A stretch of DNA of 64,000 nucleotides, taken from the IMG/VR virus record IMGVR_UViG_3300049491_000350, positions 18,751-82,750 of that record, one strand, 5' to 3'. Each line of letters opens with the position of its first letter. Position 1 is the stretch's first letter. Positions 26,688 to 63,741 of this stretch are shown piece after piece. The position numbers were made by a program, and so were the translations under genes. Below the pieces are notes generated by a model. That model was not told the DNA's origin. It did not search any database and saw nothing but the letters and a program-made list of their open reading frames with translations. The stretch comes from a virus.

Positions 26688-26699
26688 TAAAATATTTTA
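26688..26699. repeat. Boundary palindrome TAAAATATTTTA (copy 9)
   Basis: Perfect palindrome whose last A is the A of the ATG at 26699. Confidence 0.85.
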
Positions 26700-29600: not shown

Positions 29601-32600
29601 TGGTGCGCCAGCGCAATTCTTTGCGTTCCGATATTTACCGCATACGTGATGGCAATTACTTCGGCGCAGTAAATAATATATCAAGGCGTATGGGTGTCCA
29701 GTACAATGGCATGGAGAGGGATGAGTACAACCGGGTAGTAGAACCTGCGGCTAATAATGCTGGCAGGTTTTCAACGTTCAATATAAAAGATGGCGATGAA
29801 ATTGTTTTGCCAAACAATGAGAAGATGACTGTCGTTAGCGCAGATGAAAACAGGATAGTAATGGATGATGGCTCTGGCAAAAACGATTTGATTTTTGACG
29901 GCAAATCAGAATTTGAAAATGTTTTTATACCTACCTTTTTTTCTGGCAACAAACAGTTTGCCCAGCTTAACCCAACTATACATGCACAGGCTGTACAGTT
30001 CAGGAAGAAACTGCTTAATGAGCCTAACGCTGACGTACATAATATTGCTGTTAATTATGTACGGAACAATGGCATTGCCAACGATATTGATACAAGGCCA
30101 GTTACTTCCCTTAACGAAAAAGAATCTGCGGATAGAGCCAAAAGATTTGAGCAGGTTGTACATGCGCCAAAGGAGAAGGCTACAATAGATTCATACGAAG
30201 CCCTTAAAAAAGAAACGCTTGCACAATGGAATGCGATTACGGATGCAGGTTATAACCTTGAGCTATGGAGTGGCAAGGGAGAGCCTTATTCTTCTTCTAA
30301 GGCAATGACCGATGACGTTAGGGAGAATAAACATTTATGGATACTGCCTACACTGAATGAGTTTGGCAGCAATGAAGATTTTGATGCCAGCGAAAACCCA
30401 TTGCTTGAAAAGACAGGCATGGTTGCCAGTGGCATGGAGCTTACTTATAACGATGTGTTCCGGGGCGTACATGATTTCTTTGGCCATGCCCATATTGGAA
30501 ACCAGTTTGGTGCTATTGGTGAGGAGAACGCATGGAGGTCTCACTCTCAAATGTATTCCCCTCTGGCAAGGAAAGCTATGACGATGGAGACCCGGATGCA
30601 AAACTCATGGGTGAATTTCAGTGGAGAGAATGTTGCAGCATTGAACTTGTTCAAAGAAGCTGCAACGCTGGAAAAACAGTCAAAGGATAAGAGCGGCAAT
30701 ATTATTGACCGTGATAAATATGAGCAGTCTATTGCGCTTAAAAAGGAAGCACAGTTGAAATTTAAGTTTGCAGACCAGAAGGTAGCTGTGGCATCCGATG
30801 AAGATGTGCAGATGAGAGGTGCTTACGATAATGTACAGGAAGGGCTTGACCAGCCATCAAGTATAACCCAATACAAGAAAGGTGAAACTGTTTCACTTGC
30901 AGACTTACAAAACGAGTGGCCTGTAACTAACGAAGGGATGGTTGATATGTTCCAGTGGGGCAAGTCTCAAGATGTACAGATTGGATTCCGGGCAATGCGC
31001 CAGACCGATGGCATTGCCTTTTACAATCCTTTAAGCGATGAGATATACTTCAACGTTAGCCATCCTGAATTTAAGAGCCTGACAGTTGCAGATACACAGG
31101 AGTTCTTGGCACATGAGCTTATCCATAAAGCTGCCCACTATTCTTTTGAAAACAACCCGGAGCTTGCTGGTGAGTTCAATAAGGATGCAGGCAAGGTGAT
31201 TGCCTTCTTGAAGCAGCAGGATATAACCAAACTTGATGCCACCACACAGAAGTACATCTCGTTCATGCTTGAAGATAACGCAGACCCACAAGAGCTTATC
31301 ACGTATGGTATGACTAATCCTTATATAGCGCAATGGTTTGCATCTCTTGAATACAATGCCAGCGAACAGGGGCAAAAAAGCGGTAGCGTATGGCAGTGGA
31401 TGAAAGAAAAAATATTACGCTTTGTAAGCAATATAGTTAAAGGTAAAAGCGTTTTAGATGAGACAGCCAGACTGCTTGATAAATATGTGAAGTTTGGGCT
31501 TCAAACAAGAATGAGTGAACGTGAACAATTGCATAGCCAGATATTAGAACAGTTGAATAACTCAACTGTTCCCGACACTATGAAGATTGGCATTCGCAGT
31601 GCGCCAGCAGAAGATGTAATCAATTTCATTTACGAACAGGCTACCAATACTACTAACGCAGATGGGCAATTGTATAGCGGCAGGGAAGCTCTTGAGCAGC
31701 AGTTTGGAAAGGAACTTGTTGATAGGGTAGTTGATTATAAGCAGCGTGAAATATCTGCACCACTGGCTGCTAACAAACCTCTGGAAGGCAAACCTGAAAG
31801 GCTCGACAATGAAAGCGCATTTGATTATGCCAAGAGGGTACGTGAATGGTACAACAAAGCAAGGCAGGACAAAGAGCTTGATTCAAAAGACAGGCGCAAG
31901 GCGCAGGTTGAATCCATAGAGGAACGTGATTACCTTGCCCACATACGGGATGGGGTAGCCCTGTTGAAAATCAATGCAGGCATAAGCATAGAAGATTTCA
32001 ACAAGCAATTGAATATCCCTGCGGATAATCTTGAGACCTATATAGCATCGCTGCAACAGTTGACAGAAGATAAAGAGGATGCTGCTGCAAACAAAAATGC
32101 GAAGGCTGTACTTGATGCTTTGCGCCAGCAATACCCGGAGAGGGTAACTATGACAGAGGTAGAGCTTCTCCGTAAGCAATACAATGCCTACAACAATGGA
32201 TACCGCAAGGCAATGAATACTGCCAGAAAAAACCTGTCTAAGGCTACCAAAGAGTTCAACGAAAATTATAAACTGCTAAAGGCATACAAGAATGCAGAGC
32301 GGCAGCAGATGGCTGCTGACCTTAAAGGTAAATCTGCGGCTGAAAGAAACGAGTTGATAAAAAAGAAAAATGAGGAACGCAGGCAAAAAGTCTTAGCTCT
32401 TAAAGATAAGATGGAGCAGGCGAAGAAAGATTATGAGCAGAAGGTTGCTGACATCAAAGACAGGAATAAATACTTCCGAGATAAGGTTGCTGATATTCTT
32501 ACTGACCTGTACAAGTCTGGCGCACTGAAAGGAGTAACATTCACTGAACAAGAATTATTGCAACTTGCCGCTACTGCTGGCAACGTATATACGAACAAGA

Positions 32601-35600
32601 CATTTAAAAAACTGCAACAGGTAATAGACAAGCTGATAAACAAAGCTGACTATTATAATAAACTTACTGATGCAAGGAAAGCCCAGAGAGAAGCAAAGCG
32701 TATAGTTAAGAGCGGCGTGGTTACACAGAATGACATAGCTGTTATTAAAGAACTAACTGGCATGAATGTGTCTGACGTAACTGATTTGGATAAGTACCTA
32801 AGCATACTGAAAGACTTTAACGACAGCAGGGTTGTAAAGACTTCGCCTATTCGCCAGTACACTAACGATGCTATATCTGATTTCATTACAACAGAAAAAG
32901 ACGCACAGCTTGGCAATTACAGGCAGGAGATAAAAGACGAAATGGATGACCTTAAATCATCTCTCGATTATACTGTTGCATCTCAAACAGTTTCCATTAC
33001 TGCGCCAGATGGAGTTGATATTGAAAAAGAAATAAACGGCATTATCGCTTCCAATGAAATGTCTTTTGGTGAAAAGAGAAAAGCGATTGGCGAAATTGAC
33101 AATGCTGTTGCTGGCCTGTCATCAAAAATAAGTGAGACCCTTGACGGCATCAATACAGATGCCATTGTATTTGACGATATAAGGAACTCTGCTGACGATA
33201 CAACCTCTCCACAACACGAAGGGCTGATTACTGCGCTTGAAGATGTGATGGCTGCACAGCAGGCTATAATTGATTTAGACGACACTTCCCTGACAGATGA
33301 ACAACGGTATAAATTAAAAGTATTGAAAGATGTGGTGCTTGACGGCATGGATGCAAATGAGCTTCGTTTGTTTTCCAATGTTCTTAATAATTACATTGAC
33401 AACAATGACGATAGCGGATTTGATTATATCGAATCAATTTATCTGGCACAGGAGAGCGTAAGGGAAATGACAGACTACATGCTGGATAACCATATTGTTT
33501 TAAAGGACAACGCATACGATGGAAAGGTGCTGGGTAAAACATTTGAATCGCTGTCAAGCGTGGAGCAGGTGTTCCTTCACATAGCAAACTCTGGTGCAGT
33601 GTTCACATCAAAGTTATTTAATTGGGCTGGCGTAAACAAGTTTCAACAGCAGGCGCAAAAAGCGTACAATCATTATCGTGAACAATTTCAAACACCACTT
33701 GAGGAGATATTGAACAGGAACAAAAAGGAAATGGATATACATGCCAATACCCGGATGCAGGTGTTCAGCATATTAAACCAGTCTATTCAAAATTCCAGCT
33801 TATTGGAAAAGAATAAAGAGTTGCTGAAAAGGATTGATGAAATGTATTCTGATATTGGCATAAAGCGTCAGGGCAATAATCAGGAAAAGGCCGAAGCTGA
33901 AATAGAATACGCACAAGTTGAATCCCTTCGCTTGCTTGTTGCAGACAGGGCAGGTATTGATTGGGCAGATGCAGACCAGCGCAAGCTGCTTACTAAAGAA
34001 ATCTTTGATAATTCAACTGGCGAATATTTAGACCCAGCAGAGAAAGAGGTGTACGCACTGGTTCAGAAATTCTATGGCGATACCAAGCAGACATTCCAGC
34101 AGACAATGAACGGATTACTGAATGAGAAGTTTGAGGCTTGGGATAATTACAGCCCTGATTCATTCAGGAATCTTAATGGCGGCGTAGTTGCAGTGGATGA
34201 GAACTCATGGAAGGGTTCAGCATTTGCTGCTCAACAGAACGGGTACACGCTTACTGGCGGAGCAACAAACCAGCGTGTCAAGGGAAACAGGGTGCGGCTT
34301 GCAAAGGTTGGCGATAACCAGAGGGTGTTCAGGATGGATTATCTTGGCCTCAATGGTAAGAACATAATGTCTATGCTGCATGACGTGTACACTGCTAAAG
34401 AGCGCATGGTTATGTATAACGTATTGAAGTCAGAGGACTTCATCAAAAACGTTGGAACATCGAACCATGAGACGATGAAGAAAACAATTACTCGCCACGT
34501 AAACAATGAGGTTGGATTACAGAAGCTGGAACAGGATGCGGTTAGTAAGAATATAAGGGCTGTTGCAAATGAAGTTGGGCAACTTGCCACCAAGCGTCAG
34601 CTATATTCATTCTCTGCATTCGTTAAGCAAAGCATATCCGCATACTCAAATACGGCAGTGTACATGGCATTGAACGGCAGCATGGATTCTTTTCTTGAAG
34701 GTGTACGTGCTGCGGCAAATGACTTGGATGCAAATGAATTGCTGCATGGCCAGCAGGTAGGAAGGAGGGGAGAGACAAAGGCAGGCCTCAATATCTTTAA
34801 TGATTTCAATAAAGAGAAAGAGCTTGCAGCGCAGGATAAAGATAAATCTGTTTTCAAAAAATACTACGACAAGGTGGTGCATGGTGAAAACAAATACACT
34901 GGCGAAAGGGCAAAGCGTATGGGGTACTTCATTGAGAAGGGCGATGTGGTTGCCGCCAGAGGTTCTTGGCTTGCCTATTACGCACAACACCTTGTTAAGA
35001 ATGGCGTGGTTACAAACGCTTCTGATATTGATTGGGCTAACGAGAACCAGAACCCTAATCAGGAGGCTGTGTCATACGCACAGATAATGACCAGTAATGC
35101 AATGAACGTAAATGCAAACTCATCACGCAGCGAATTTCAGCAAAGCACTTCTGGTGGTCTGGTGTTTGTTAAGGCGATGCTTGCTGCATTCAGTTCATTC
35201 CAATTTAATAAAAGCGTCAGCCTGTTCAACAACTTGCGCTCCCTATCTAAAGGAAGCTATGCCACTATTCTTGATTCTAATGGGCAGGAGCAAATCATTA
35301 AGGCATCGGAAGAACAGCGCAAAGATGAAATCAATACATCTTACAAAACATTACTGGCATCGCTATCCGAAGAAATGATTTTCAATGCAGCGAAGCTGGG
35401 CATAGGGTACACGCTGTATAAAACAATTCCATTCCTGCTTGGCTCACTGTTTGGAGGAGACGATGATGAAACAAAAAAGAGAAAGAAAATAATCAGCCAA
35501 GAAGGGGAGCAATCTTATTGGGATAACGCAGGCATTAAATGGTGGACAAATGTATTCAATGGGTTTGCGTTATCAATAATACCAGACATCGCACAGAAGC

Positions 35601-36211
35601 AATTGAACTCCGGGGTTAACGAAATCGCTAAGGCTTCTGGCGGAGATAAAATATTTTACGAACCGAAACAAAAAAGCGGACAGTCATCACTAATGGGTTC
35701 ATTTCAGGCAGCAGCACAAGATGTGCCAGAGGACGTATCGAGGCTGTACGAATATTTATTTAAGCACACAGCCAGCGATGGAAGCCCTGTTACTGTGTCA
35801 AGCAAAGACAAAGGGATGGCATTGCTGGGCTTATTGAGCGATGGTGCAGGCTTTACTGGATATGGAGACGCAGACCTTAACAGGGTGCTACATGCCCACA
35901 TCAAACAGGCGCAGGTAGATAACGATGCAAATTTCAAGAAGCCTTATACTATCCTTATGAACGACCCGGACAAGGGGCGTGTGGTAACAGTGAACAAAGA
36001 GAAGATAGAATTGACTGATGACCAGACCGATTTCTTTAATGATAAAAGGAAGGAGTATTTTGACAAGATGCCTAAGACTGTCATAGACGCAATGGATAAA
36101 AACGAGACCGTTAAGCAACGAATGAATACAGCCGCCACTACGTTTGCGAAAGCTGCAACCATGCTCAAGTATGGGGAGCAGATACGGGAAGCCATAAAGA
36201 AAGCGAAGTAA
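26699..36211 (+). CDS. Giant 3170-aa multidomain (polyvalent-type) internal virion protein
   Basis: The N-terminus has two copies of a short repeat (YDFMKSQGVEGLPEFQQF-type, residues 7-26 and 41-60). An Ala/Gly-rich hydrophobic region lies at about 564-620. At 1252-1305 is a DVFRGVHDFFGHAHIG segment followed by ENAWRSHSQMYSPLAR-type residues, a domain I recognise from giant phage ejection/polyvalent proteins. A zincin-type HELIH (1472-1476) marks a metallopeptidase domain. A long coiled coil covers about 1820-1925, and a hydrophobic segment with FLLGSLFGGDDDE lies near 2914. Such proteins are carried in the head and injected ahead of the DNA, where they protect it or process host proteins. 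No vRNAP motif (DFDGD) was seen. Note the absence of a Cys-based autoprocessing site. Confidence 0.75.
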   Translation: MDEKLQSIYDFMKSQGVEGLPEFQQFKTDFAANPETQRSTLDFMKSKGVEGLPDIGQFSNDIGVKKKDGGTDLSNGDSMEGTQKDTATSGSEESGSNTFDFYKAIDPMGFMRGGLELDYDGVKIPVTSFDIPQPPDSRPYPERLGQFDTGEYNKAFVGEIQNYLTDDKYIGSPERQKAQEYVQNIRLKNAYRNDAFSFSDVSMAEAQRFADRYGVELGTELNGDYFQKVKALKDKVNADTKEQYTEHRVQGRSDLPYEVFNDNGYKNDADNNTINNLFERLSSKMADRGTADDAKDVVVQYADQRTIFEKGMDYASPVYGAASSAVNNALLFGSKKIDANFITGLNQRKLADPVEYARIAKQIANGEPVASNDYFRLTNVGLSINNSDNLEGLSTGKQTIEDFISNHRGIMQQSSDLLLNTKDVLKSAIADELGSRLDEKAEKESLLGNNVTGSYMYSDEEINAALPAALQSIGVNKDDPRVVDAINSIKGDEGWMVGMNGVKKGGLVRELFKGAAQPFRGIAAWGDSFGKPLSQEYNEAKNQQLSTYTEQRPESMKGTVLNTLSDAVYGLGQFASQAGLAYAGGEIVGGIGALAGGVGEAGAAAATETAAARGALSGLDAAAESIAADAVSAGSKIGNYLLRNREAISTFATGYLQSYDSNLKTTLQMTEDDASAKLGAQFLAAMEGASELILPDVKLGREIIGGFKKEAIPGLLKNISENILKKGVDKNAWAKVGEYAGKRLLSAAATTGQEIAEEEITQLANYATNVVLNPKQAGNRDLGDELFKTAVSTAVSMSIPAFLRSGGGNHNTGLDNNKAALVLASANLTTIQDYINTAVSKGMMNPDEASAKMQIVNTAHSIASQMPANKNDGTKMNITERAEYLYSRTKEAALADAITKTTDDVLKERYKKEIAEEQALRKGLIEKTETRFDGKYLSDKERNIFVNKQSELARIDTRLAENPDDKTLVRQRNSLRSDIYRIRDGNYFGAVNNISRRMGVQYNGMERDEYNRVVEPAANNAGRFSTFNIKDGDEIVLPNNEKMTVVSADENRIVMDDGSGKNDLIFDGKSEFENVFIPTFFSGNKQFAQLNPTIHAQAVQFRKKLLNEPNADVHNIAVNYVRNNGIANDIDTRPVTSLNEKESADRAKRFEQVVHAPKEKATIDSYEALKKETLAQWNAITDAGYNLELWSGKGEPYSSSKAMTDDVRENKHLWILPTLNEFGSNEDFDASENPLLEKTGMVASGMELTYNDVFRGVHDFFGHAHIGNQFGAIGEENAWRSHSQMYSPLARKAMTMETRMQNSWVNFSGENVAALNLFKEAATLEKQSKDKSGNIIDRDKYEQSIALKKEAQLKFKFADQKVAVASDEDVQMRGAYDNVQEGLDQPSSITQYKKGETVSLADLQNEWPVTNEGMVDMFQWGKSQDVQIGFRAMRQTDGIAFYNPLSDEIYFNVSHPEFKSLTVADTQEFLAHELIHKAAHYSFENNPELAGEFNKDAGKVIAFLKQQDITKLDATTQKYISFMLEDNADPQELITYGMTNPYIAQWFASLEYNASEQGQKSGSVWQWMKEKILRFVSNIVKGKSVLDETARLLDKYVKFGLQTRMSEREQLHSQILEQLNNSTVPDTMKIGIRSAPAEDVINFIYEQATNTTNADGQLYSGREALEQQFGKELVDRVVDYKQREISAPLAANKPLEGKPERLDNESAFDYAKRVREWYNKARQDKELDSKDRRKAQVESIEERDYLAHIRDGVALLKINAGISIEDFNKQLNIPADNLETYIASLQQLTEDKEDAAANKNAKAVLDALRQQYPERVTMTEVELLRKQYNAYNNGYRKAMNTARKNLSKATKEFNENYKLLKAYKNAERQQMAADLKGKSAAERNELIKKKNEERRQKVLALKDKMEQAKKDYEQKVADIKDRNKYFRDKVADILTDLYKSGALKGVTFTEQELLQLAATAGNVYTNKTFKKLQQVIDKLINKADYYNKLTDARKAQREAKRIVKSGVVTQNDIAVIKELTGMNVSDVTDLDKYLSILKDFNDSRVVKTSPIRQYTNDAISDFITTEKDAQLGNYRQEIKDEMDDLKSSLDYTVASQTVSITAPDGVDIEKEINGIIASNEMSFGEKRKAIGEIDNAVAGLSSKISETLDGINTDAIVFDDIRNSADDTTSPQHEGLITALEDVMAAQQAIIDLDDTSLTDEQRYKLKVLKDVVLDGMDANELRLFSNVLNNYIDNNDDSGFDYIESIYLAQESVREMTDYMLDNHIVLKDNAYDGKVLGKTFESLSSVEQVFLHIANSGAVFTSKLFNWAGVNKFQQQAQKAYNHYREQFQTPLEEILNRNKKEMDIHANTRMQVFSILNQSIQNSSLLEKNKELLKRIDEMYSDIGIKRQGNNQEKAEAEIEYAQVESLRLLVADRAGIDWADADQRKLLTKEIFDNSTGEYLDPAEKEVYALVQKFYGDTKQTFQQTMNGLLNEKFEAWDNYSPDSFRNLNGGVVAVDENSWKGSAFAAQQNGYTLTGGATNQRVKGNRVRLAKVGDNQRVFRMDYLGLNGKNIMSMLHDVYTAKERMVMYNVLKSEDFIKNVGTSNHETMKKTITRHVNNEVGLQKLEQDAVSKNIRAVANEVGQLATKRQLYSFSAFVKQSISAYSNTAVYMALNGSMDSFLEGVRAAANDLDANELLHGQQVGRRGETKAGLNIFNDFNKEKELAAQDKDKSVFKKYYDKVVHGENKYTGERAKRMGYFIEKGDVVAARGSWLAYYAQHLVKNGVVTNASDIDWANENQNPNQEAVSYAQIMTSNAMNVNANSSRSEFQQSTSGGLVFVKAMLAAFSSFQFNKSVSLFNNLRSLSKGSYATILDSNGQEQIIKASEEQRKDEINTSYKTLLASLSEEMIFNAAKLGIGYTLYKTIPFLLGSLFGGDDDETKKRKKIISQEGEQSYWDNAGIKWWTNVFNGFALSIIPDIAQKQLNSGVNEIAKASGGDKIFYEPKQKSGQSSLMGSFQAAAQDVPEDVSRLYEYLFKHTASDGSPVTVSSKDKGMALLGLLSDGAGFTGYGDADLNRVLHAHIKQAQVDNDANFKKPYTILMNDPDKGRVVTVNKEKIELTDDQTDFFNDKRKEYFDKMPKTVIDAMDKNETVKQRMNTAATTFAKAATMLKYGEQIREAIKKAK

Positions 36212-57483: not shown

Positions 57484-58344
57484 TTATTTTTGATTTGGTT
57501 TTAATTCAGTAAGAGACCATCCATCTTTGAAAGTAGCATCGCTTTCAATTTCCATGTCAATAAGAATATCAAGCAACTCCGGGTCATTGTCTGCGCCGTT
57601 CTGCAAGTCATTGAGAGAGCCAAGCACACAGAATTTGCATGACACCCTATCGTTGCCATAAGCGTAAGCAGGGTGAAAATCCCACCAGTTAGGAACTATG
57701 CCATTTTGCTTATACAGCCGCCTTGCCAAAGCCAGAGTTTCAATAGTTTGATTTTTGGTAGCCAGCACGTTTTCCAGAGTGAAATTAAATATGGGATACC
57801 AGTTCAAAAACAGTTTGTACTTAGGCTTATAATTAAGCAAGGCTTCCTCAACAGTCATGCCTTTATAGTAACTGGACGAGTTGCTTCTTATTGATAGAGC
57901 CTGCTTCTTAGCACGTTGTTTACTTTCATCAGACCGTATCCCTTCGCAACTGATAATAAGCGATTCGTTGGTACTGGTGAAGAAAACATTTATCGGCGCA
58001 CGTTTCAAATCGCTGGTGCAGTACCGGGCATTTGATGAACTCCAAAACGGCTTGCCAGTTCCTTGCAGCATTCTCATCCTGCGCTGCCAGTATTCAAGCA
58101 AACCAAGCCCATCCTTCCTTTTAATAACGTGCAAGGGTATATCATACTCATCAGAGCATTTTTGGCACTGTGGCAAACTTTCAGCCCATTCAACCCTGCC
58201 GAGGTCGGCATGTACAAGCCCAGCTATTGAAAACTTATTAGCCACAAGAGCCTGCACCATAGCATCGCCATCCTTGCCACCAGACACGGAGGCGTATAGC
58301 TTTGCGCCTTTCGATTGAGCCAGCCTTATTAACTCTGTTGACAT
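57484..58344 (-). CDS. PAPS-reductase/DndC-like PP-loop protein
   Basis: 286 aa. The PP-loop SGGKDG (residues 21-26) binds the adenylate or phosphate of ATP or PAPS. The further motifs are typical of this group: RYCTSDLKRAPI (108-119), CEGIRSDES (133-141), and CKFC (236-239), a Cys pair that may bind a metal cluster. DndC-type relatives install phosphorothioate in DNA; others in phages have unknown substrate. No DndA, DndD or DndE gene is visible. Its start overlaps the end of the 51-aa gene by 16 nt. Confidence 0.75.
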   Translation of the reverse strand: MSTELIRLAQSKGAKLYASVSGGKDGDAMVQALVANKFSIAGLVHADLGRVEWAESLPQCQKCSDEYDIPLHVIKRKDGLGLLEYWQRRMRMLQGTGKPFWSSSNARYCTSDLKRAPINVFFTSTNESLIISCEGIRSDESKQRAKKQALSIRSNSSSYYKGMTVEEALLNYKPKYKLFLNWYPIFNFTLENVLATKNQTIETLALARRLYKQNGIVPNWWDFHPAYAYGNDRVSCKFCVLGSLNDLQNGADNDPELLDILIDMEIESDATFKDGWSLTELKPNQK

Positions 58345-58484
58345 TGTGTATCCTTTTTAATTTCGCCAGCATTCGATGAATTGCTTTTTGCATTCACAGA
58401 ATAGCTGACTGTGATAACTGCCTTTTGATAACGCTTTACCATGTTTTTAAAGTAGGTAAGTTCCTTTCTTTCTTCTCTTGTCAT
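58329..58484 (-). CDS. Small basic unknown protein, 51 aa
   Basis: From MTREERKEL at 58484. The open frame runs upstream to 58565 through the hammerhead ribozyme, but that extension is non-coding RNA sequence (see the ribozyme entry). Basic, with a Lys-rich helix and a Ser/Asn-rich tail. It overlaps the PP-loop gene by 16 nt, so they are probably coupled. Function unknown. Confidence 0.6.
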   Translation of the reverse strand: MTREERKELTYFKNMVKRYQKAVITVSYSVNAKSNSSNAGEIKKDTQCQQS

Positions 58485-58504
58485 CGTTTGTATGTGCCTG
58501 TTAT

Positions 58505-58519
58505 AGTCTGCACCTGACT
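58505..58519 (-). ncRNA. Leader hairpin E10
   Basis: Stem AGUC/GACU with loop AGGUGCA on the minus strand, followed by AUAACAGGC. It lies between the ribozyme cleavage site and the ATG at 58484. Confidence 0.8.
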
Positions 58520-58522
58520 TTT

Positions 58523-58574
58523 GATTAAGACTGGCTTGCGCCAGTTTCGCCGCATGACGGCTCATCAGTTAATC
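58523..58574 (-). ncRNA. Type I hammerhead ribozyme HHR-E10
   Basis: Minus-strand RNA. Stem I GAUUAA/UUAAUC (6 bp). Core CUGAUGA, stem II GCCG/CGGC with loop UCAUG, core GAAA, stem III closed by a GCAA tetraloop, then GUC and the cleavage site. Predicted cut between C (complement of 58529) and U (complement of 58528). The cut frees the 5' end of the leader of the 51-aa gene. The upstream stop codon (58575-58577) is directly before stem I. Confidence 0.9.
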
Positions 58575-58799
58575 TTAATTAAATTCCAGTTTGTTATTCT
58601 CTGGGTTAAAATACCTTTTAGTTTCGCCACGCAATACGCCGCCTCTGTCTTTCATTGATGCAGTTATTAAATACCTTCCATCAGGCTGCTTCTTAACAGA
58701 GAAGCTACTCATGGTTTGCCCAAAAAATTTCAATGTCTCTTTAGTAAAAAAGAACGGTGCTGTTTCTTTTGTCGCTTCTTTGATTTGATAAATTGTCAT
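58575..58799 (-). CDS. Unknown 74-aa early protein
   Basis: It begins with ATKETAPFFFTKETLKFFGQ, a pattern I have seen in a family of small phage proteins of unknown function (F-F-x-x-x-T-x-K-F-F). The C-terminus is beta-like. A leader hairpin and a ribozyme lie upstream and another ribozyme is directly downstream. Function unknown. Confidence 0.6.
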   Translation of the reverse strand: MTIYQIKEATKETAPFFFTKETLKFFGQTMSSFSVKKQPDGRYLITASMKDRGGVLRGETKRYFNPENNKLEFN

Positions 58800-58819
58800 C
58801 GTTTATGAGTGCCTGTTAT

Positions 58820-58834
58820 AGACTGCACCTGTCT
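58820..58834 (-). ncRNA. Leader hairpin E9
   Basis: Stem AGAC/GUCU (covaries with AGUC/GACU of other copies), loop AGGUGCA, then AUAACAGGC. It is 20 nt before the ATG at 58799. Confidence 0.8.
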
Positions 58835-58837
58835 TTT

Positions 58838-58892
58838 GGTTAAGACTGGCATTGCTGCCAGTTTCGGCTATTGAAGCCATCGTCAGTTAACC
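58838..58892 (-). ncRNA. Variant hammerhead ribozyme HHR-E9
   Basis: Stem I GGUUAA/UUAACC. The core reads CUGACGA (position 7 is variable in hammerheads) but an extra U lies between this core and stem II (GGCU/AGCC, loop UCAAU). GAAA, stem III CUGGCA/UGCCAG with a GCAA loop, then GUC follow. Stems are intact; the extra U may lower or abolish cleavage. The stop codon of the 222-aa gene (58887-58889) lies inside stem I. Confidence 0.75.
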
Positions 58893-59555
58893 TTTTACGG
58901 GGTAAACAAAGCGAATATTATGACCCCATTTGCGTTTGCTATAATCTTCGCCAGATTCATGGAACGAGAAAGTAAAGCCTGCAACATTATCGGAAAGAAG
59001 GCTGTTATTGAACTGGTGTATAATGCTTTTATGTTGTTCTGACCAGTCAATAGTTTTATCGTTTTCATTTATCCAGCCAATTTCCTTACCGTATGAAGTG
59101 AAAACAATAGTGTTAATCAAATCAACCTTAATAGCAATCAAACCTTTGGATATTACAAACGGGTTGCCAATGATAATGCAGTTAAGCGTTTCTGCACCTC
59201 TCCAATTGTTTACGCTTTTGCCAGACTGAATAATGTCAGCAAGTTCCTCCACTGGCATATCATAATGCGAAGCCATGCCTGCAATGCTTATCCAGTTATT
59301 TACAAATTCAATGTAAACCCTCTCTGGCTTTACAGTCCTGATATTCTGTTTGGTTATCTTGTTAGCTTCCTTTTCATCTACATTTTCAAATGTAGAGACA
59401 TTGAACTGGTGAAGCAATTTATTGTCAGTGCGCCTGTATATTGAAAAGATTCCAGCAGTTTCAATACCATAGTTGTAAGTCCTCCGCTTGCCTTTGTAGT
59501 AAGCGTAACGTTCTTTGTTTGAACGGATAATTATTTCCTGTATTTTCTTGTCCAT
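58887..59555 (-). CDS. Unknown 222-aa early protein
   Basis: Not recognised. Alpha/beta with a start rich in Tyr and Lys and a C-terminal beta part with FTFSFHESGEDYSKRKWGHNIRFVYP. Stop TAA at 58887-58889 lies within ribozyme stem I. Upstream is a leader hairpin without ribozyme, plus a perfect boundary palindrome 44 nt from the start. Function unknown. Confidence 0.65.
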   Translation of the reverse strand: MDKKIQEIIIRSNKERYAYYKGKRRTYNYGIETAGIFSIYRRTDNKLLHQFNVSTFENVDEKEANKITKQNIRTVKPERVYIEFVNNWISIAGMASHYDMPVEELADIIQSGKSVNNWRGAETLNCIIIGNPFVISKGLIAIKVDLINTIVFTSYGKEIGWINENDKTIDWSEQHKSIIHQFNNSLLSDNVAGFTFSFHESGEDYSKRKWGHNIRFVYPVKG

Positions 59556-59575
59556 TTTGTTTGAGTGCCTGTTAT

Positions 59576-59590
59576 AGACTGCACCTGTCT
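59576..59590 (-). ncRNA. Leader hairpin E8 (no ribozyme)
   Basis: Stem AGAC/GUCU, loop AGGUGCA, then AUAACAGGCAC. No hammerhead core upstream; instead a perfect palindrome at 59599-59610 precedes it. Confidence 0.75.
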
Positions 59591-60157
59591 TTAGTTTTTA
59601 AAATATTTTACAAAGTATTCTCTGGCTGCTTTTTTGTATTCATCCTCACCACTTTCAAAGTCGCTAACCATCATCGCCAGAGATTCACATTCTGGAGATT
59701 TGCACCAGCCCATTTGAAACTCATTGTACTTTTCAAAGTATTCTTTGTCAGTATCACCCGGCTTTAATGTTATAAAGCCAAGCAGAGACACAAGCGATTC
59801 TATACTGTCCTGTGCAAACATTGTAGATGGCTTAAAGTCTATGCCTTCAAACAATATCTCATCACCTAAGCATACAGTATAGTCAACTTTTTCTCCACCA
59901 ATGTAAACAAGGTAAGCAGAGAGGTTAAGGTCAGGAATCTCTAAGCCACAAAGAAAGTTGTCATCATCCATTATAAATTCCTTTACAGATTCAATTGCAT
60001 CTTCAAACTCAATCCTTGTTTTAGGAGTTCTTTTATGTCCAAATTCTTTGAACAAATCCCATGCAACAGATTCACTTCTTTCATCAATCTGCGTAGTGTC
60101 AATCACCTTATCATTTCCATTAAGGTAAGTAACATTGTAAACGGTTCTATGTTTCAT
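59591..60157 (-). CDS. Unknown 188-aa acidic early protein
   Basis: From MKHRTVYNV at 60157. The frame is open to 60238 through the hammerhead, giving a false N-terminal extension that is identical to that of the 51-aa gene at 58484. Acidic, alpha/beta, with CLGDEILFEGIDF. Its C-terminus, VKYFKN, is encoded by the perfect palindrome at 59599-59610. Function unknown. Confidence 0.65.
   Translation of the reverse strand: MKHRTVYNVTYLNGNDKVIDTTQIDERSESVAWDLFKEFGHKRTPKTRIEFEDAIESVKEFIMDDDNFLCGLEIPDLNLSAYLVYIGGEKVDYTVCLGDEILFEGIDFKPSTMFAQDSIESLVSLLGFITLKPGDTDKEYFEKYNEFQMGWCKSPECESLAMMVSDFESGEDEYKKAAREYFVKYFKN
59599..59610. repeat. Boundary palindrome TAAAATATTTTA (copy 19)
   Basis: Perfect palindrome within the last codons of the 188-aa gene and 44 nt upstream of the next start, at a junction that lacks a ribozyme. 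Confidence 0.7.
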
Positions 60158-60177
60158 GCGTTGTATGTGCCTGTTAT

Positions 60178-60192
60178 AGTCTGCACCTGACT
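60178..60192 (-). ncRNA. Leader hairpin E7
   Basis: Stem AGUC/GACU, loop AGGUGCA, then AUAACAGGC, 20 nt before the ATG at 60157. Confidence 0.8.
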
Positions 60193-60195
60193 TTT

Positions 60196-60247
60196 GATTA
60201 AGACTGGCTTGCGCCAGTTTCGCCGCATGACGGCTCATCAGTTAACC
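60196..60247 (-). ncRNA. Type I hammerhead ribozyme HHR-E7
   Basis: Stem I GGUUAA/UUAAUC (one G-U pair), CUGAUGA, stem II GCCG/CGGC with loop UCAUG, GAAA, stem III CUGGC/GCCAG plus A-U with GCAA tetraloop, GUC. Predicted cut between the complements of 60202 and 60201. Stem II and III sequences match HHR-E10. The stop codon of the 184-aa gene is in stem I. Confidence 0.9.
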
Positions 60248-60796
60248 TTCCTTCTCATCAGTGTGAGGGAAAAACCTGCCATCTCTGGTAAAATAATATT
60301 CGTTTATTATGATAGTTTCCTTTACTGATTCTTCCCCGGTAAGGTAGTCGTATTCATTGCTTAATATAGTAAGGTAGTCTCCTGCAATTTCTTCTTTGAA
60401 CTCATCATCAATAGTATCAACTTCATTGTCAAAATCATACTCATTCTCTGGTGTAACAGTAGTTTTATCTGTGCCATCAGAATACTTTTCAACCAGAGCA
60501 TTGTATGCCAGCCTATGCTTCATTGCAGTTTTGTATGTGTCGCAACTTTCGCCATGCTCTTTAATAATAAGGTCAACAGTGTCAGATGCTGTATTTGACA
60601 GGACAATGCTGCAAAACCTACCTCTATCAATATCAAACCCATTAATCTTAATGCCAACATTTTCAGCATCTGAATAGATGTTTTCATACCATCTGTCATC
60701 TACATTTATGTTTGCAAAATGATTCATTGCAACCTCTTTCGCTTTGTCGTTAAGTTCTTCAAACTTGAAAACTTTTGTTCTTATTGTTTTACTCAT
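60242..60796 (-). CDS. Conserved phage early protein, 184 aa
   Basis: From MSKTIRTKV at 60796; the frame is open to 60886 through the ribozyme, but that part is RNA. It begins TIRTKVFKFEELNDKAKEVAMNHFANINVDDRWYENI, a start I recognise from conserved uncharacterised phage early proteins (a short helix, then a WYE/WxxF motif). The C-terminus is acidic. Stop TAA lies in stem I of the ribozyme. Function unknown. Confidence 0.7.
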   Translation of the reverse strand: MSKTIRTKVFKFEELNDKAKEVAMNHFANINVDDRWYENIYSDAENVGIKINGFDIDRGRFCSIVLSNTASDTVDLIIKEHGESCDTYKTAMKHRLAYNALVEKYSDGTDKTTVTPENEYDFDNEVDTIDDEFKEEIAGDYLTILSNEYDYLTGEESVKETIIINEYYFTRDGRFFPHTDEKEG

Positions 60797-60817
60797 AACA
60801 TTATTGCAGCCTGTTAT

Positions 60818-60832
60818 AGTGTGCGCCTCACT
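60818..60832 (-). ncRNA. Leader hairpin E6
   Basis: Stem AGUG/CACU with loop AGGCGCA: both stem positions and one loop base differ from other copies while pairing is kept. 21 nt before the ATG at 60796. Confidence 0.8.
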
Positions 60833-60835
60833 TTT

Positions 60836-60895
60836 GGTTAATACGCTGCTGCAATTACAGCAGCGTTTCAGGTATTGAACCCTCATCAGTTAACC
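60836..60895 (-). ncRNA. Type I hammerhead ribozyme HHR-E6
   Basis: Stem I GGUUAA/UUAACC (perfect), CUGAUGA, stem II GGGU/ACCU (one G-U pair) with loop UCAAU, GAAA, a long 9-bp stem III ACGCUGCUG/CAGCAGCGU with a 6-nt loop. The cleavage triplet is GUA instead of GUC, which hammerheads tolerate (NUH). The stop codon of the 140-aa gene is in the CUGAUGA core (60886-60888). Confidence 0.85.
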
Positions 60896-61308
60896 TCGCC
60901 GTCTTTTTTGAAGCATAACTTTCCGTAAGCAGATGCAATATTGAAAAAGTGCGTTTCCTCGGTAGGGTGTATTGTAATTTCAGTTAAACTTTTACCGGGA
61001 GTGCCAATTTTAATACTGTCAACAGTAATGTAAGAACGCTTTGAATATTCTGAAATAGCCTGCTTTAACAATACAGCATAATCATTTGGAAGGTGCATAG
61101 TTGCAGGCTTAGTCCATATCGCTTTTTCTTTTTCCTGACCATGCTGCATTCCCATTTCAAAAATATCTGTTTGAGAAAAATCTCCGTTATCCGTTACGGA
61201 TATTTTGCCGTCATTAATTTCAGTTTCGCAAGCCAGATGGTTTTCAAGAAATTCCTTTGCGCCATCAGCGTTTTTGCCTAACTGTCTTTGGTCTAATAAT
61301 ATTTTCAT
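60886..61308 (-). CDS. Unknown 140-aa early protein
   Basis: Not recognised. Alpha/beta with an acidic middle. It contains KPATMHLPNDYAVLLKQAISEYSKRSYITVDSIKIGTPGK. The stop TGA is formed by the CUGAUGA core of the ribozyme. Upstream is a leader hairpin and a ribozyme. Function unknown. Confidence 0.65.
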   Translation of the reverse strand: MKILLDQRQLGKNADGAKEFLENHLACETEINDGKISVTDNGDFSQTDIFEMGMQHGQEKEKAIWTKPATMHLPNDYAVLLKQAISEYSKRSYITVDSIKIGTPGKSLTEITIHPTEETHFFNIASAYGKLCFKKDGEVN

Positions 61309-61328
61309 ACACTATGTGTGCCTGTTAT

Positions 61329-61343
61329 AGTCTGCACCTGACT
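61329..61343 (-). ncRNA. Leader hairpin E5
   Basis: Stem AGUC/GACU, loop AGGUGCA, then AUAACAGGCACAC, 20 nt before the ATG at 61308. Confidence 0.8.
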
Positions 61344-61346
61344 TTT

Positions 61347-61400
61347 GATTAAGACTGGCATTGCTGCCAGTTTCGGGTACTGAACCCTCATCAGTTAATC
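61347..61400 (-). ncRNA. Type I hammerhead ribozyme HHR-E5
   Basis: Stem I GAUUAA/UUAAUC, CUGAUGA, stem II GGGU/ACCC with loop UCAGU, GAAA, stem III CUGGCA/UGCCAG plus A-U with GCAA tetraloop, GUC. The whole stem II differs from HHR-E10 (GCCG/CGGC) while pairing is kept. Predicted cut between the complements of 61353 and 61352. The stop codon of the lipoprotein gene is in stem I. Confidence 0.9.
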
Positions 61401-61655
61401 TTCCCACATCATTTGCTCTAATGTATCATAATCAGCATCTGGCTTTACAAAGTGCAGGCAGTCTATAATGTGGCAGTCAGTTCCTTCTTCACAGCCAGTA
61501 TAGTTTGTTATTGCCTGCATGTATATTTCAGGAACGTTTGGAATGCCTTTGTAAGGGCAATGTTGAAACGGGCAGCAATGCCCTGCTATTTCGATTTTAT
61601 TACAGCCAGCCAGCATAATGCAGGCAACTATAATGATTTTAATTTTGCTTCTCAT
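61395..61655 (-). CDS. Small lipoprotein, 86 aa
   Basis: ATG 61655 chosen because it begins a lipoprotein signal: MRSKIKIIIVACIMLAGC with lipobox LAGC at residues 15-18; a further ATG at 61688 would put 11 residues before it. The mature part is Cys-rich (HCCPFQHCPYK, CEEGTDCHIIDC). Overlaps the upstream gene by 17 nt and has no leader hairpin. A surface-exposed phage lipoprotein could block superinfection; this is inference. Confidence 0.65.
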   Translation of the reverse strand: MRSKIKIIIVACIMLAGCNKIEIAGHCCPFQHCPYKGIPNVPEIYMQAITNYTGCEEGTDCHIIDCLHFVKPDADYDTLEQMMWED

Positions 61656-61962
61656 TTTCGATGTTGGTTTTATTTGTGTTATACTCATCAGTTGTAATTA
61701 ACCCCATGTCAAAATTGTCCTGATTCTCTTTAAGCCTTGCAGCTTTGTTCCCATCTGCTTCTGCTTTTTGCATTGCTACATATAAGTCAGCAATTTCTGC
61801 CATGCGTTTAAGTTCCTTCCGGGCAATCTCTTTTCCTTTTTCGTTGCCATCTTGCAATACAGTAAGGTAGTAAGGCAGAATGCCTACCCATGTTGGGGTG
61901 CAATCAATAACCCCAACAACCTTGCCTTTAATAACAGTTGTTTCTTGTTTTTTACTTTTCAT
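61639..61962 (-). CDS. Unknown 107-aa early protein
   Basis: Not recognised. Beta start (VIKGKVVGVIDCTPTWVG) followed by a long charged helix (about 45-80, ARKELKRMAEIADLYVAMQKAEAD). Its stop lies within the lipoprotein gene's start region. It is preceded by a leader hairpin without ribozyme. Function unknown. Confidence 0.6.
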   Translation of the reverse strand: MKSKKQETTVIKGKVVGVIDCTPTWVGILPYYLTVLQDGNEKGKEIARKELKRMAEIADLYVAMQKAEADGNKAARLKENQDNFDMGLITTDEYNTNKTNIENEKQN

Positions 61963-61982
61963 CGTTTATGAGTGCCTGTTAT

Positions 61983-61997
61983 AGACTGCACCTGTCT
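61983..61997 (-). ncRNA. Leader hairpin E4 (no ribozyme)
   Basis: Stem AGAC/GUCU, loop AGGUGCA, then AUAACAGGC. Upstream is AAUAUUAAACCAAAAG, an AT-rich stretch that resembles the boundary palindrome in 9 of 12 bases, and no hammerhead core. Confidence 0.7.
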
Positions 61998-62003
61998 TTT
62001 GGT

Positions 62004-62288
62004 TTAATATTTTAATTCAGAAGTAATGTATCTGCATTCTTTTTCCAGCATTGAAATAAGAGATTCAAGTTGCCTTTCTTTTCTTTCAGCCAGCCTATAT
62101 AGCTCATCGGATTCATTAAACATTGAAAGGGTTAAATAGTGTCCTGCATTGTTATTGTACAAACCTTCGGCTAAAAGAATGCAGTCAATTACATGCTGGA
62201 AAAACTGTACAGCATTGCCATTTATTTCATCTTCATAAATGAATGCTCTGTTAAAAGCCTCCATCTGTATTTTTATTACTGACAACAT
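62004..62288 (-). CDS. Unknown 94-aa early protein
   Basis: Not recognised. Helical and acidic with FFQHVIDCILLAEGLYNNNAGHYLTLSMFNESDE. A leader hairpin and full ribozyme lie upstream. Its stop is followed by the ribozyme-free leader E4. Function unknown. Confidence 0.65.
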   Translation of the reverse strand: MLSVIKIQMEAFNRAFIYEDEINGNAVQFFQHVIDCILLAEGLYNNNAGHYLTLSMFNESDELYRLAERKERQLESLISMLEKECRYITSELKY

Positions 62289-62309
62289 ATATTTTCAGCA
62301 GCCTGTTAT

Positions 62310-62324
62310 AGTGTGCGCCTCACT
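62310..62324 (-). ncRNA. Leader hairpin E3
   Basis: Stem AGUG/CACU, loop AGGCGCA, then AUAACAGGC, 21 nt before the ATG at 62288. Confidence 0.8.
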
Positions 62325-62327
62325 TTT

Positions 62328-62387
62328 GGTTAAGACACTGCTGCAATGCCAGCAGTGTTTCGCCGTTTCACGGCTCATCAGTTAACC
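62328..62387 (-). ncRNA. Type I hammerhead ribozyme HHR-E3
   Basis: Stem I GGUUAA/UUAACC, CUGAUGA, stem II GCCG/CGGC with loop UGAAA, GAAA, a 9-bp stem III ACACUGCUG/CAGCAGUGU with a 6-nt loop, GUC. Predicted cut between the complements of 62334 and 62333. The stop codon of the 318-aa gene is in stem I. Confidence 0.9.
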
Positions 62388-63338
62388 TTTTTTATTCCAG
62401 CCTAACAAGCCAGCAATGTATTCAATTTCGCTTACTGGTATGTGATGGCAACCCACTTCCAAAACGTCTTTAGTAGCTTTATTAACGTTGTATTCCAGCA
62501 TCTTGAAATTGCAATCTCCATCACAGCCGCCAGCAGCAACTATTCTGTTATAAAAGGCATAGTAACGCTTTGCAACATCGGTAGGAATATCTACCCCTTT
62601 GAATGTATTAACAACGTTACCGGATAGGCGCAAATAGGTTGTATTTTCATACCTTACTTGATTATAGTAAAACTCAAAATTTGTTTTCATTGCGCCTTTT
62701 ATAGATTCGGAAAACTCTGTTTTTGATTGCCCACTTTTCCAGCTATCAATAAACGATTGAAATACCTTTTTGCCAGCCTTCATCTTTTTGTCAAACGCTT
62801 TTGCTTGTGCAATCTTTTCTGCCTCCGCCGCCTTGTTTGCTTTGTCCATTGCCTCTTTAAATTCGCCAGCATTTGAAAAGCTAATTTCAGCCTGTTGTTT
62901 TGCCGATATTTCAATATTAAAAAATGCAGTGTATTTATTCAATAGTTCTTTTTGTGCATCTATTTGAGCCATGTAAATGGCAGGCTTACGAGCCGTTGTT
63001 AATTTGTTCTTTGCAATTGATACAATGTTAAAAATAAAGGAGGCAACATTGTTTGCATGGTAATTCCTTGCTGCCTCATCAGGATTCATGCAGTAGATTA
63101 TATCAAGATGAGACACTGCACTTTTTACCAGAGAGATATGACCGGAAGTTGTATTGCTGTAAGTACGTGTTGTAAACAATACAATGCCATTGTAATGGAC
63201 TGCAATAGGGAAGTGCCTGCCATAGCTGTAAATGGTATCACCATCGAAATAAAAATTGCCATGTGCAACCCTGCCTTCATCCTGCACTTTGTTTGCCCAA
63301 AAATGTGCAACCTGATTTGTTCCTAATATTCTTTTCAT
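62382..63338 (-). CDS. Unknown 318-aa early protein
   Basis: Not recognised, though its start, AHFWANKVQDEGRVAHGNFYFDG, resembles uncharacterised early proteins of large phages. A beta-rich N-terminus (residues 1-75), a Lys/Ala-rich helical centre (about 145-205, AMDKANKAAEAEKIAQAKAFDKK), and a Cys-containing C-terminus (CDGDCNF). No signal or TM. Stop lies in ribozyme stem I. Largest gene of the ribozyme region. Confidence 0.65.
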   Translation of the reverse strand: MKRILGTNQVAHFWANKVQDEGRVAHGNFYFDGDTIYSYGRHFPIAVHYNGIVLFTTRTYSNTTSGHISLVKSAVSHLDIIYCMNPDEAARNYHANNVASFIFNIVSIAKNKLTTARKPAIYMAQIDAQKELLNKYTAFFNIEISAKQQAEISFSNAGEFKEAMDKANKAAEAEKIAQAKAFDKKMKAGKKVFQSFIDSWKSGQSKTEFSESIKGAMKTNFEFYYNQVRYENTTYLRLSGNVVNTFKGVDIPTDVAKRYYAFYNRIVAAGGCDGDCNFKMLEYNVNKATKDVLEVGCHHIPVSEIEYIAGLLGWNKKG

Positions 63339-63358
63339 AATTGTTGTGCGCCTGTTAT

Positions 63359-63373
63359 AGTCTGCGGCTGACT
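63359..63373 (-). ncRNA. Leader hairpin E2
   Basis: Stem AGUC/GACU, loop AGCCGCA, then AUAACAGGCGC, 20 nt before the ATG at 63338. Confidence 0.8.
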
Positions 63374-63376
63374 TTT

Positions 63377-63436
63377 GGTTAAGACACTACTGCAATGCCA
63401 GCAGTGTTTCGCCGTTTCACGGCTCATCAGTTAACC
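63377..63436 (-). ncRNA. Type I hammerhead ribozyme HHR-E2
   Basis: Stem I GGUUAA/UUAACC, CUGAUGA, stem II GCCG/CGGC with loop UGAAA, GAAA, a long stem III ACACUGCUG with CAGUAGUGU (one G-U pair, otherwise as HHR-E3), GUC. The stop codon of the 91-aa gene is in stem I. Confidence 0.9.
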
Positions 63437-63706
63437 TTTAATTTCTTCTCTCATTCTTTTAATCATTTGCAGTTCTGTATTAATGCAGCGTACATGGTGA
63501 AGCGTATAAATTTCGCCATGCAGCCATCCATTGCCGTTAGTAGCTTCCTTAACATCATTTAAAAATGATTCGGTTTGTTTAATAGCTCTCGTCATGTAAG
63601 CCTTTTTGCTTGCAATTGTTTTGTAGTCGCTAAGAATTTCGAGAGTGATTTTTTTTGTTTCACTTAGCGGAGTGATACGAGCTAAGTAGTTTTTAGAAGT
63701 TGACAT
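63431..63706 (-). CDS. Unknown 91-aa early protein, first of the array
   Basis: Not recognised. Helical, basic, with LETKKITLEILSDYK-type start and AYMTRAIKQTESFLNDVKEA. First gene of the minus-strand block visible in the window, preceded by hairpin E1 (no ribozyme) and a likely promoter region. Its stop lies in stem I of HHR-E2. Function unknown. Confidence 0.65.
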   Translation of the reverse strand: MSTSKNYLARITPLSETKKITLEILSDYKTIASKKAYMTRAIKQTESFLNDVKEATNGNGWLHGEIYTLHHVRCINTELQMIKRMREEIKG

Positions 63707-63726
63707 ATTTTTTGCCCGTCTGTTAT

Positions 63727-63741
63727 AGTCTGCGGCTGACT
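63727..63741 (-). ncRNA. Leader hairpin E1 (no ribozyme)
   Basis: Stem AGUC/GACU, loop AGCCGCA, with AUAACAG on both sides. First copy at the upstream end of the array. It is 20 nt before the ATG at 63706. Confidence 0.75.

What the first reader, a model, noticed from the sequence alone, without database searches (positions are those of the whole stretch)
58523..63436. Tandem hammerhead ribozymes punctuate an early phage operon
Seven copies of a type I hammerhead lie between genes on the coding strand, at 58523-58574, 58838-58892, 60196-60247, 60836-60895, 61347-61400, 62328-62387 and 63377-63436. Seen directly: CUGAUGA, stem II, GAAA, stem III, and GUC or GUA in the right order in each (the 58838 copy has a variant core). 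Compensatory changes support the fold: stem I GGUUAA/UUAACC versus GAUUAA/UUAAUC; stem II GCCG/CGGC versus GGGU/ACCC; stem III CUGGC/GCCAG versus CUGGCA/UGCCAG versus the 9-bp ACACUGCUG/CAGCAGUGU. Known: single or paired hammerheads occur in bacteria and phages. New here, as far as I can tell, is a dense array with one in most junctions of one operon, with stop codons built into the ribozyme. Inferred: the transcript cuts itself into gene-sized mRNAs with defined ends.
Basis: partly seen in the sequence, partly recalled or inferred. Interest (0 to 1): 0.95.

Follow-up and report, generated by a model that had tools for sequence, protein, structure and literature searches.

The report
Self-cutting RNAs between phage genes
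In this virus of (probably) Bacteroidota bacteria, seven small self-cleaving RNAs (hammerhead ribozymes) sit between the genes of one operon, each exactly 44-45 bases ahead of the next start codon, so one long transcript can cut itself into separate mRNAs with preset ends; the same kind of array recurs in many uncultured viruses and, as single copies, in cultured phages where it can be tested.

Summary
All seven minus-strand type I hammerheads are at the stated coordinates (7 pattern matches, 0.02 expected), and they are the only ones in the 82.7-kb viral record. Rfam's own models miss them (best: RAGATH-1-hammerhead, 34.8 bits against a cutoff of 56.3). A model built from 53 relatives scores every copy 59-68 bits, and all three stems show strong compensatory change. 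What is new, as far as I could check, is a large hammerhead subclass of (probably) Bacteroidota phages: stem I GGUUAA/UUAACC, stop codon often inside the ribozyme, cut about 22 nt before the next AUG. Arrays reach nine copies, and in one virus 8 of 9 junctions carry one. Cultured Flavobacterium Elemovirus phages carry one copy each, so in-vivo cleavage can be tested. No cleavage has been shown for any copy here. One copy (58838) has an extra core nucleotide and may be slow. New variant of a known kind.

The parts
63377..63436 (-). hammerhead 1 (type I); predicted cut between 63383 and 63382; upstream stop UAA in stem I
   Evidence: (62.6 bits)
62328..62387 (-). hammerhead 2; predicted cut 62334/62333
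   Evidence: (64.7 bits)
61347..61400 (-). hammerhead 3; predicted cut 61353/61352
   Evidence: (68.2 bits)
60836..60895 (-). hammerhead 4 (cleavage nucleotide A: GUA); predicted cut 60842/60841; upstream stop UGA lies in the core
   Evidence: (62.4 bits)
60196..60247 (-). hammerhead 5; predicted cut 60202/60201
   Evidence: (59.5 bits)
58838..58892 (-). hammerhead 6; CUGACGA plus one inserted U between A9 and stem II; may be slow or inactive
   Evidence: 60.1 bits, insertion shown
58523..58574 (-). hammerhead 7; stop codon of the upstream gene abuts it
   Evidence: (60.6 bits)
63716..63741 (-). hairpin leader of the first gene (no hammerhead)
63348..63373 (-). hairpin leader after hammerhead 1
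62299..62324 (-). hairpin leader after hammerhead 2 (stem GUG/CAC, compensatory)
61972..61997 (-). hairpin-pseudoknot leader without hammerhead
61318..61343 (-). hairpin-pseudoknot leader after hammerhead 3
60807..60832 (-). hairpin leader after hammerhead 4
60167..60192 (-). hairpin-pseudoknot leader after hammerhead 5
59565..59590 (-). hairpin-pseudoknot leader without hammerhead
58809..58834 (-). hairpin-pseudoknot leader after hammerhead 6
58494..58519 (-). hairpin-pseudoknot leader after hammerhead 7
63431..63706 (-). gene A (91 aa), no family match
62382..63338 (-). gene B (318 aa), phrog_7247, unknown function
62004..62288 (-). gene C (94 aa)
61639..61962 (-). gene D (107 aa), phrog_22670, unknown function
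61395..61655 (-). gene E, overlaps gene D, lipoprotein-like start; start codon chosen by eye
60886..61308 (-). gene F (140 aa)
60242..60796 (-). gene G (184 aa), phrog_5162, unknown function; homologues follow the same leader in other viruses
59591..60157 (-). gene H (188 aa)
58887..59555 (-). gene I (222 aa), phrog_26669, unknown function
58575..58799 (-). gene J (74 aa)
58329..58484 (-). gene K (51 aa)

Best explanation
This is an array of seven type I hammerhead ribozymes in the junctions of one phage operon, each joined to a hairpin-pseudoknot leader. On the transcript each ribozyme folds behind the polymerase and cuts itself after the GUC or GUA of stem III. The upstream mRNA then ends just after its stop codon in two hairpins (stems II and III) with a 2',3'-cyclic phosphate. 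The downstream mRNA begins with a 5'-hydroxyl, UUAACC or UUAAUC, then the leader, then AUG 44-45 nt from the cut. The function proposed is to turn a polycistronic transcript into one- or two-gene mRNAs with a short, G-poor leader suited to initiation without Shine-Dalgarno pairing, and with both ends less open to decay. Shown here: presence, structure, covariation, position, recurrence. From general knowledge: hammerhead chemistry and end groups. Inferred: that these copies cleave in the infected cell, and the effect on translation and stability.
For: Seven intact motifs against 0.02 expected, only in this operon. Covariation in all three stems over 53 sequences. Flank-only test: 186 stem-I-flanked elements have the intact CUGANGA core and GAAA; only two have a mutated core (U4 to C) in an otherwise intact hammerhead; many loci were fetched by a pattern that includes the core, so this is partly ascertained. 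Conserved contacts beyond the core: A 5' of stem I 97%, A 3' of it 86%, loop II U-N-A-N-U with U1 100% and A3 90%, as expected for loop II-stem I docking. Of 194 sites in related loci, 189 have a start codon downstream, median 22 nt from the cut (quartiles 21-26); a start within 40 nt in 92% vs 25% at random positions; the upstream stop inside the ribozyme in 44% vs 6.5%. In the window the distance is 44-45 nt in all seven. Leaders are 5% G. No junction terminators on the coding strand by the simple scan. Downstream genes are mostly unrelated, so the element, not a gene family, is what recurs. Perreault 2011 saw comparable clusters cleave in vitro and in E. coli.
Against: No cleavage data for any copy. 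Rfam models do not recognise them at the curated cutoff. Copy 58838 has an inserted U in the core. Stem I is only 6 A/U-rich pairs, and in native context secondary-structure prediction gives it near-zero probability in three copies (61347, 60196, 58523), though tertiary contacts and co-transcriptional folding are ignored there. Three of ten junctions lack a ribozyme. A-rich leaders are general in these viruses (44% A without a ribozyme, 52% with), so A-richness alone does not argue for a leader-making role.
Confidence: 0.7

Rival explanations
1. The ribozymes cleave, but mainly to control amounts: cleavage removes or gates linkage between genes. Because the upstream stop codon lies in stem I or the core, a terminating ribosome would cover the ribozyme, so cleavage would report on translation of the upstream gene.
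For: Stop codon inside the ribozyme in 6 of 7 window copies and 44% of 194 sites. Stem I is marginal in context, so timing could matter.
Against: More than half of related sites have the stop just upstream rather than inside, so overlap may only save space. The distance to the downstream AUG is the tighter constraint.
Confidence: 0.2
2. The junction units are a cassette that spread by duplication or recombination within this phage; the copies are passengers or recombination hot spots and the ribozymes matter little.
For: Copies in the window are very alike (58523 and 60196 are 99% identical over 80 bases); related viruses carry different numbers; gene content is variable.
Against: Core and pairing kept across diverse viruses with many compensatory changes, cut-to-AUG distance kept, one orientation only.
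Confidence: 0.1
3. The conserved junction block (CTATAACAGGC before each start codon) is a DNA element, a phage promoter with a TATAAC -10 box, and each gene is transcribed on its own; the hammerhead trims read-through.
For: Nine exact copies upstream of start codons; TATAAC resembles a -10 box.
Against: The flanking stem changes in a compensatory way (GUC/GAC, GAC/GUC, GUG/CAC) and the loop co-varies with the tail (NNGC/GCNN), which RNA structure explains and a promoter does not. The Bacteroidota promoter pattern I tried is not enriched.
Confidence: 0.08
4. Hammerhead-like folds that have lost activity and serve only as stable 3' hairpins.
For: Rfam sub-threshold; one window copy with a core insertion; decayed relative in L129 (21 bits).
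Against: Near-absolute retention of the catalytic core, of GAAA and of the NUH cleavage triplet, which hairpins alone do not need.
Confidence: 0.06

Closest known systems
Clustered hammerheads in prophages (Perreault et al. 2011, PMC3088659: C. scindens, A. caulinodans, A. tumefaciens triple around ardA)
   Same: Several hammerheads flanking single genes in phage-derived operons; same proposed role; observed to cleave in vitro, one cluster also in E. coli
   Different: Text describes small clusters (three named examples, one a triple); here up to 7-9, in lytic-type viral contigs with a terminase related to Bacteroidota phages, uniform type I with fixed stem I and fixed cut-to-AUG distance. Their Dataset S1 could not be opened, so overlap with it is untested
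RAGATH-1-hammerhead (RF03152)
   Same: Type I architecture with open short stem I; best (sub-threshold) Rfam match; its 5' hairpin AGUC..GACUAUAA resembles the leader here
   Different: 34.8 bits vs cutoff 56.3; in the window the similar hairpin lies after the ribozyme, in the next gene's leader, not before it
Single hammerheads in cultured phages (Flavobacterium Elemovirus, Pelagibacter Jormungand, Methylophilales MEP301; found here)
   Same: Same architecture between small genes; elemo cut about 30 nt before an AUG
   Different: One per genome, no pseudoknot leader
Theta ribozymes of gut phages (PMC10879173)
   Same: Self-cleaving RNAs of phages acting on transcripts
   Different: HDV-like fold, linked to tRNAs; the main text does not mention hammerheads

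Membership tests
Hammerhead ribozyme, type I | Core CUGANGA ... GAAA ... NUH in order | tested here: met
   7 of 7 copies; 58838 has one extra U after A9
Hammerhead ribozyme, type I | Three stems, stem I open at the ends | tested here: met
   Predicted fold and covariation
Hammerhead ribozyme, type I | Loop II-stem I tertiary contact for fast cleavage | tested here: inconclusive
   Conserved A flanks of stem I and loop II U-N-A-N-U suggest it; not proven
Hammerhead ribozyme, type I | Self-cleavage at the NUH site | not testable with these tools
   needs transcription assay
Hammerhead ribozyme, type I | Match to an Rfam hammerhead model at the curated score | tested here: not met
   a database cutoff rather than a biochemical definition of the class
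RAGATH-1-hammerhead (RF03152) | Gathering score 56.3 bits | tested here: not met
   34.8 and 28.6 bits
RAGATH-1-hammerhead (RF03152) | Conserved hairpin just 5' of the ribozyme | tested here: not met
   Five of seven copies give no match; in the two that do, the aligned 5' hairpin is poor; similar hairpin is downstream
Prophage hammerhead clusters (Perreault 2011) | Two or more hammerheads flanking genes on one transcript of a phage | tested here: met
   Seven on one strand of one operon; co-transcription inferred

The most novel reading that the evidence does not exclude
A general, ribozyme-based mRNA maturation system of Bacteroidota phages: nearly every gene of an operon carries its own ribozyme-plus-leader cassette, cleavage is timed by the ribosome ending on the stop codon inside the ribozyme, and the new 5'-OH end is protected or regulated by a pseudoknot that a phage protein (perhaps the phrog_5162 product, whose gene follows this leader in most relatives) recognises.
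Probability: 0.15. Interest if true: 0.88.

Novelty: new variant of a known kind. Interest (0 to 1): 0.66.

Why it matters
What hammerheads do in bacterial viruses has been open since clusters were reported in 2011. The fixed distance from cut to start codon in some 190 sites, arrays covering up to 8 of 9 junctions, and the same architecture in cultured Flavobacterium phages turn that into a direct test: map 5'-OH ends and compare wild-type with core-dead ribozymes. If true, a virus would make separate mRNAs by RNA catalysis alone, without internal promoters or nucleases, in hosts that start translation without Shine-Dalgarno pairing. It also shows that current Rfam cutoffs miss a large hammerhead subclass.

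Tried and rejected
Rfam at gathering level on the window and on 21 related loci: no hammerhead hit. DNA similarity of the region to phage records: none. Short ribozyme query to plasmids: none. Bacteroidota genomes as carriers: 0 of 296 besides the known Mucilaginibacter, so this is a feature of viruses more than of host chromosomes. Phages with a related terminase but no match: Cellulophaga Calle_1 and phi46:3, Tenacibaculum Gundel_1, ctfjg026. Primase as a marker of the carrier clade: not shared. Gene G as an RNA-binding autoregulator: fair model (pLDDT 84.6) but no fold match (best E 0.87) and no sequence match, so left as speculation. Bacteroidota promoter pattern: not enriched. The hairpin pattern AAGTCAG..AGACTATAAC also caught unrelated coding sequence and a different tandem-hairpin family; only true stems were used. 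Automatic junction counts were wrong for the window because ATGs inside ribozymes were taken as starts; I counted those by eye. Weinberg 2015, which I take to be the RAGATH source, is not in the library.
Full report
What was checked. The window is bases 18,751-82,750 of an 82,750-base linear viral record. On the minus strand I read the region directly and searched for the hammerhead pattern: seven matches, all in the reported region, against 0.02 expected. A model built from 53 hammerheads of this and related viruses gives the same seven, 59.5-68.2 bits, and nothing else above 15 bits in the window; the rest of the record has none.

Rfam. No family reaches its cutoff anywhere in the window. 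In a permissive search the best is RAGATH-1-hammerhead at 34.8 bits (cutoff 56.3), then Hammerhead_3 at 20.3. But 12 loci of other viruses that are full of the same motif also give no Rfam hit, while their alignment shows decisive covariation: 94.8% of cells paired, 231 two-sided changes against 74.5 in shuffles, score 0.575 against 0.126, collapsing when partners are slid by one column. So the models, not the motif, fall short.

Anatomy of a unit. Stem I is six pairs, GGUUAA/UUAACC or GAUUAA/UUAAUC; then CUGAUGA, a 4-5 pair stem II, GAAA, stem III of 6-11 pairs, U, C (once A), then the 3' strand of stem I. In 217 sequences the base just 5' of stem I is A in 97% and just 3' is A in 86%; loop II is U-N-A-N-U (U1 100%, A3 90%, U5 83%). 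That conservation outside the core suggests a docking contact between loop II and the end of stem I, which fast hammerheads need. The upstream gene's stop codon is in stem I or the core in six copies and abuts the seventh. The predicted cut lies 44-45 nt before the next AUG in all seven (the script took gene K's start one base early, so its printed 43 is 44).

The second module. Directly after the ribozyme comes AAAAGUC-AGGUGCA-GAC-UAUAACAG-GCAC and variants, present at nine of the ten A-K junctions (all but the overlapping D/E) and before gene A, including two junctions without a ribozyme. The stem varies in a compensatory way and loop bases NNGC pair with tail bases GCNN. Over 17 sequences 94.8% of cells pair, 12 two-sided cells against 3.3 in shuffles, and slid versions fail. 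Six of ten window copies and the relatives form the four-pair tail helix (two relatives by one G-U pair); four window copies form it only in part. It is therefore a hairpin-pseudoknot leader. In most relatives the gene behind this leader is the homologue of gene G (phrog_5162), so the window probably copied one gene's leader to its neighbours. Its structure model matched no solved fold, so a regulator role is only a guess.

Recurrence. With the model, 48 of 50 records tested have matches, 20 have three or more and five have five or more; all copies in a record lie on one strand, nearly always within a few kilobases. Nine copies occur in G003 and in a metagenome contig (L134), eight in G028, where 8 of 9 junctions have one. 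In 194 sites, the downstream start codon is at a median of 22 nt from the cut, and leaders are A-rich and G-poor. Genes without a ribozyme in these viruses also have A-rich leaders, less so (44 vs 52% A, 13 vs 5% G). Downstream genes are mostly unrelated to each other.

Hosts. The window's terminase matches 87 phage records, nearly all named after Flavobacteriia (Flavobacterium, Cellulophaga, Tenacibaculum, Maribacter), and 25 of 35 tested carrier records have a relative of it. Mucilaginibacter genomes hold single copies; 296 other Bacteroidota genomes hold none. The host is thus probably a member of Bacteroidota; this is inference. Cultured Flavobacterium Elemovirus phages carry one copy each. 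elemoE has a compensatory stem II change and elemoF a broken stem II, a natural test pair. Pelagibacter phage Jormungand has one a few genes from ardA and Methylophilales phage MEP301 has one.

Mechanism. From known hammerhead chemistry, cleavage leaves a 2',3'-cyclic phosphate on the upstream RNA, which then ends in stems II and III shortly after its stop codon, and a 5'-OH on the downstream RNA. The fixed position relative to AUG makes setting the downstream 5' end the best-supported role; 3'-end protection and decoupling of genes may come along. The simple scans show no terminator in the junctions on the coding strand and no enrichment of the promoter pattern tried. Weak points: no cleavage data, an inserted U in one copy, and low predicted probability of stem I in context in three copies.

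Comparison with what is known. Gene-flanking hammerhead clusters in prophages, the mRNA-processing idea and cleavage in vitro and in E. coli were published in 2011 (PMC3088659). Searches of the open library found no report of hammerheads in Bacteroidota phages, but most subscription papers and the 2011 dataset were out of reach. I therefore call it a new variant of a known kind: a coherent subclass with array density, stop-codon overlap, fixed cut-to-AUG spacing and, in this virus, a pseudoknot leader cassette.

Noticed in passing
L142, L146, L149, L159, L163, L171, L176, L177, L187, L193, L200: Other viral contigs carry tandem short hairpins of the form nnnCAGRGAAGnnnUAUAACCGCA just before start codons, with changing stems; resembles the leader here and the RAGATH-1 hairpin, but has no hammerhead and no Rfam match in the loci tested.
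   Followed up: partly
L216:2997-3057 (Pelagibacter phage Jormungand): Hammerhead of this subclass a few genes downstream of two ardA anti-restriction genes; Perreault 2011 saw hammerheads next to ardA in Agrobacterium and Legionella.
   Followed up: partly
L214:7997-8054 (Flavobacterium phage elemoB): The annotated start of gp69 (L214 8035) lies inside the ribozyme; the real start is probably an ATG about 40 bases downstream.
   Followed up: no
L250 (elemoF): Hammerhead with a broken stem II, a natural mutant of the elemo ribozyme.
   Followed up: partly
L134 and L136: Contigs binned as Aliivibrio and Streptomycetaceae are phage-like hammerhead arrays (9 and at least 4 copies), probably mis-binned.
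   Followed up: partly
L012, L052, L112, L134: Some ribozymes in these viruses are followed at once by a tiny GNRA hairpin (GGCGAAAGCC or GUCGAAAGAC) at the start of the 3' product: a second, unrelated kind of 5' hairpin leader.
   Followed up: no
window 57484-58344 (-): PAPS-reductase-like protein (PF01507) directly after the ribozyme array.
   Followed up: no
window 26699-36211 (+): Very large open reading frame of 3170 codons among the structural genes.
   Followed up: no
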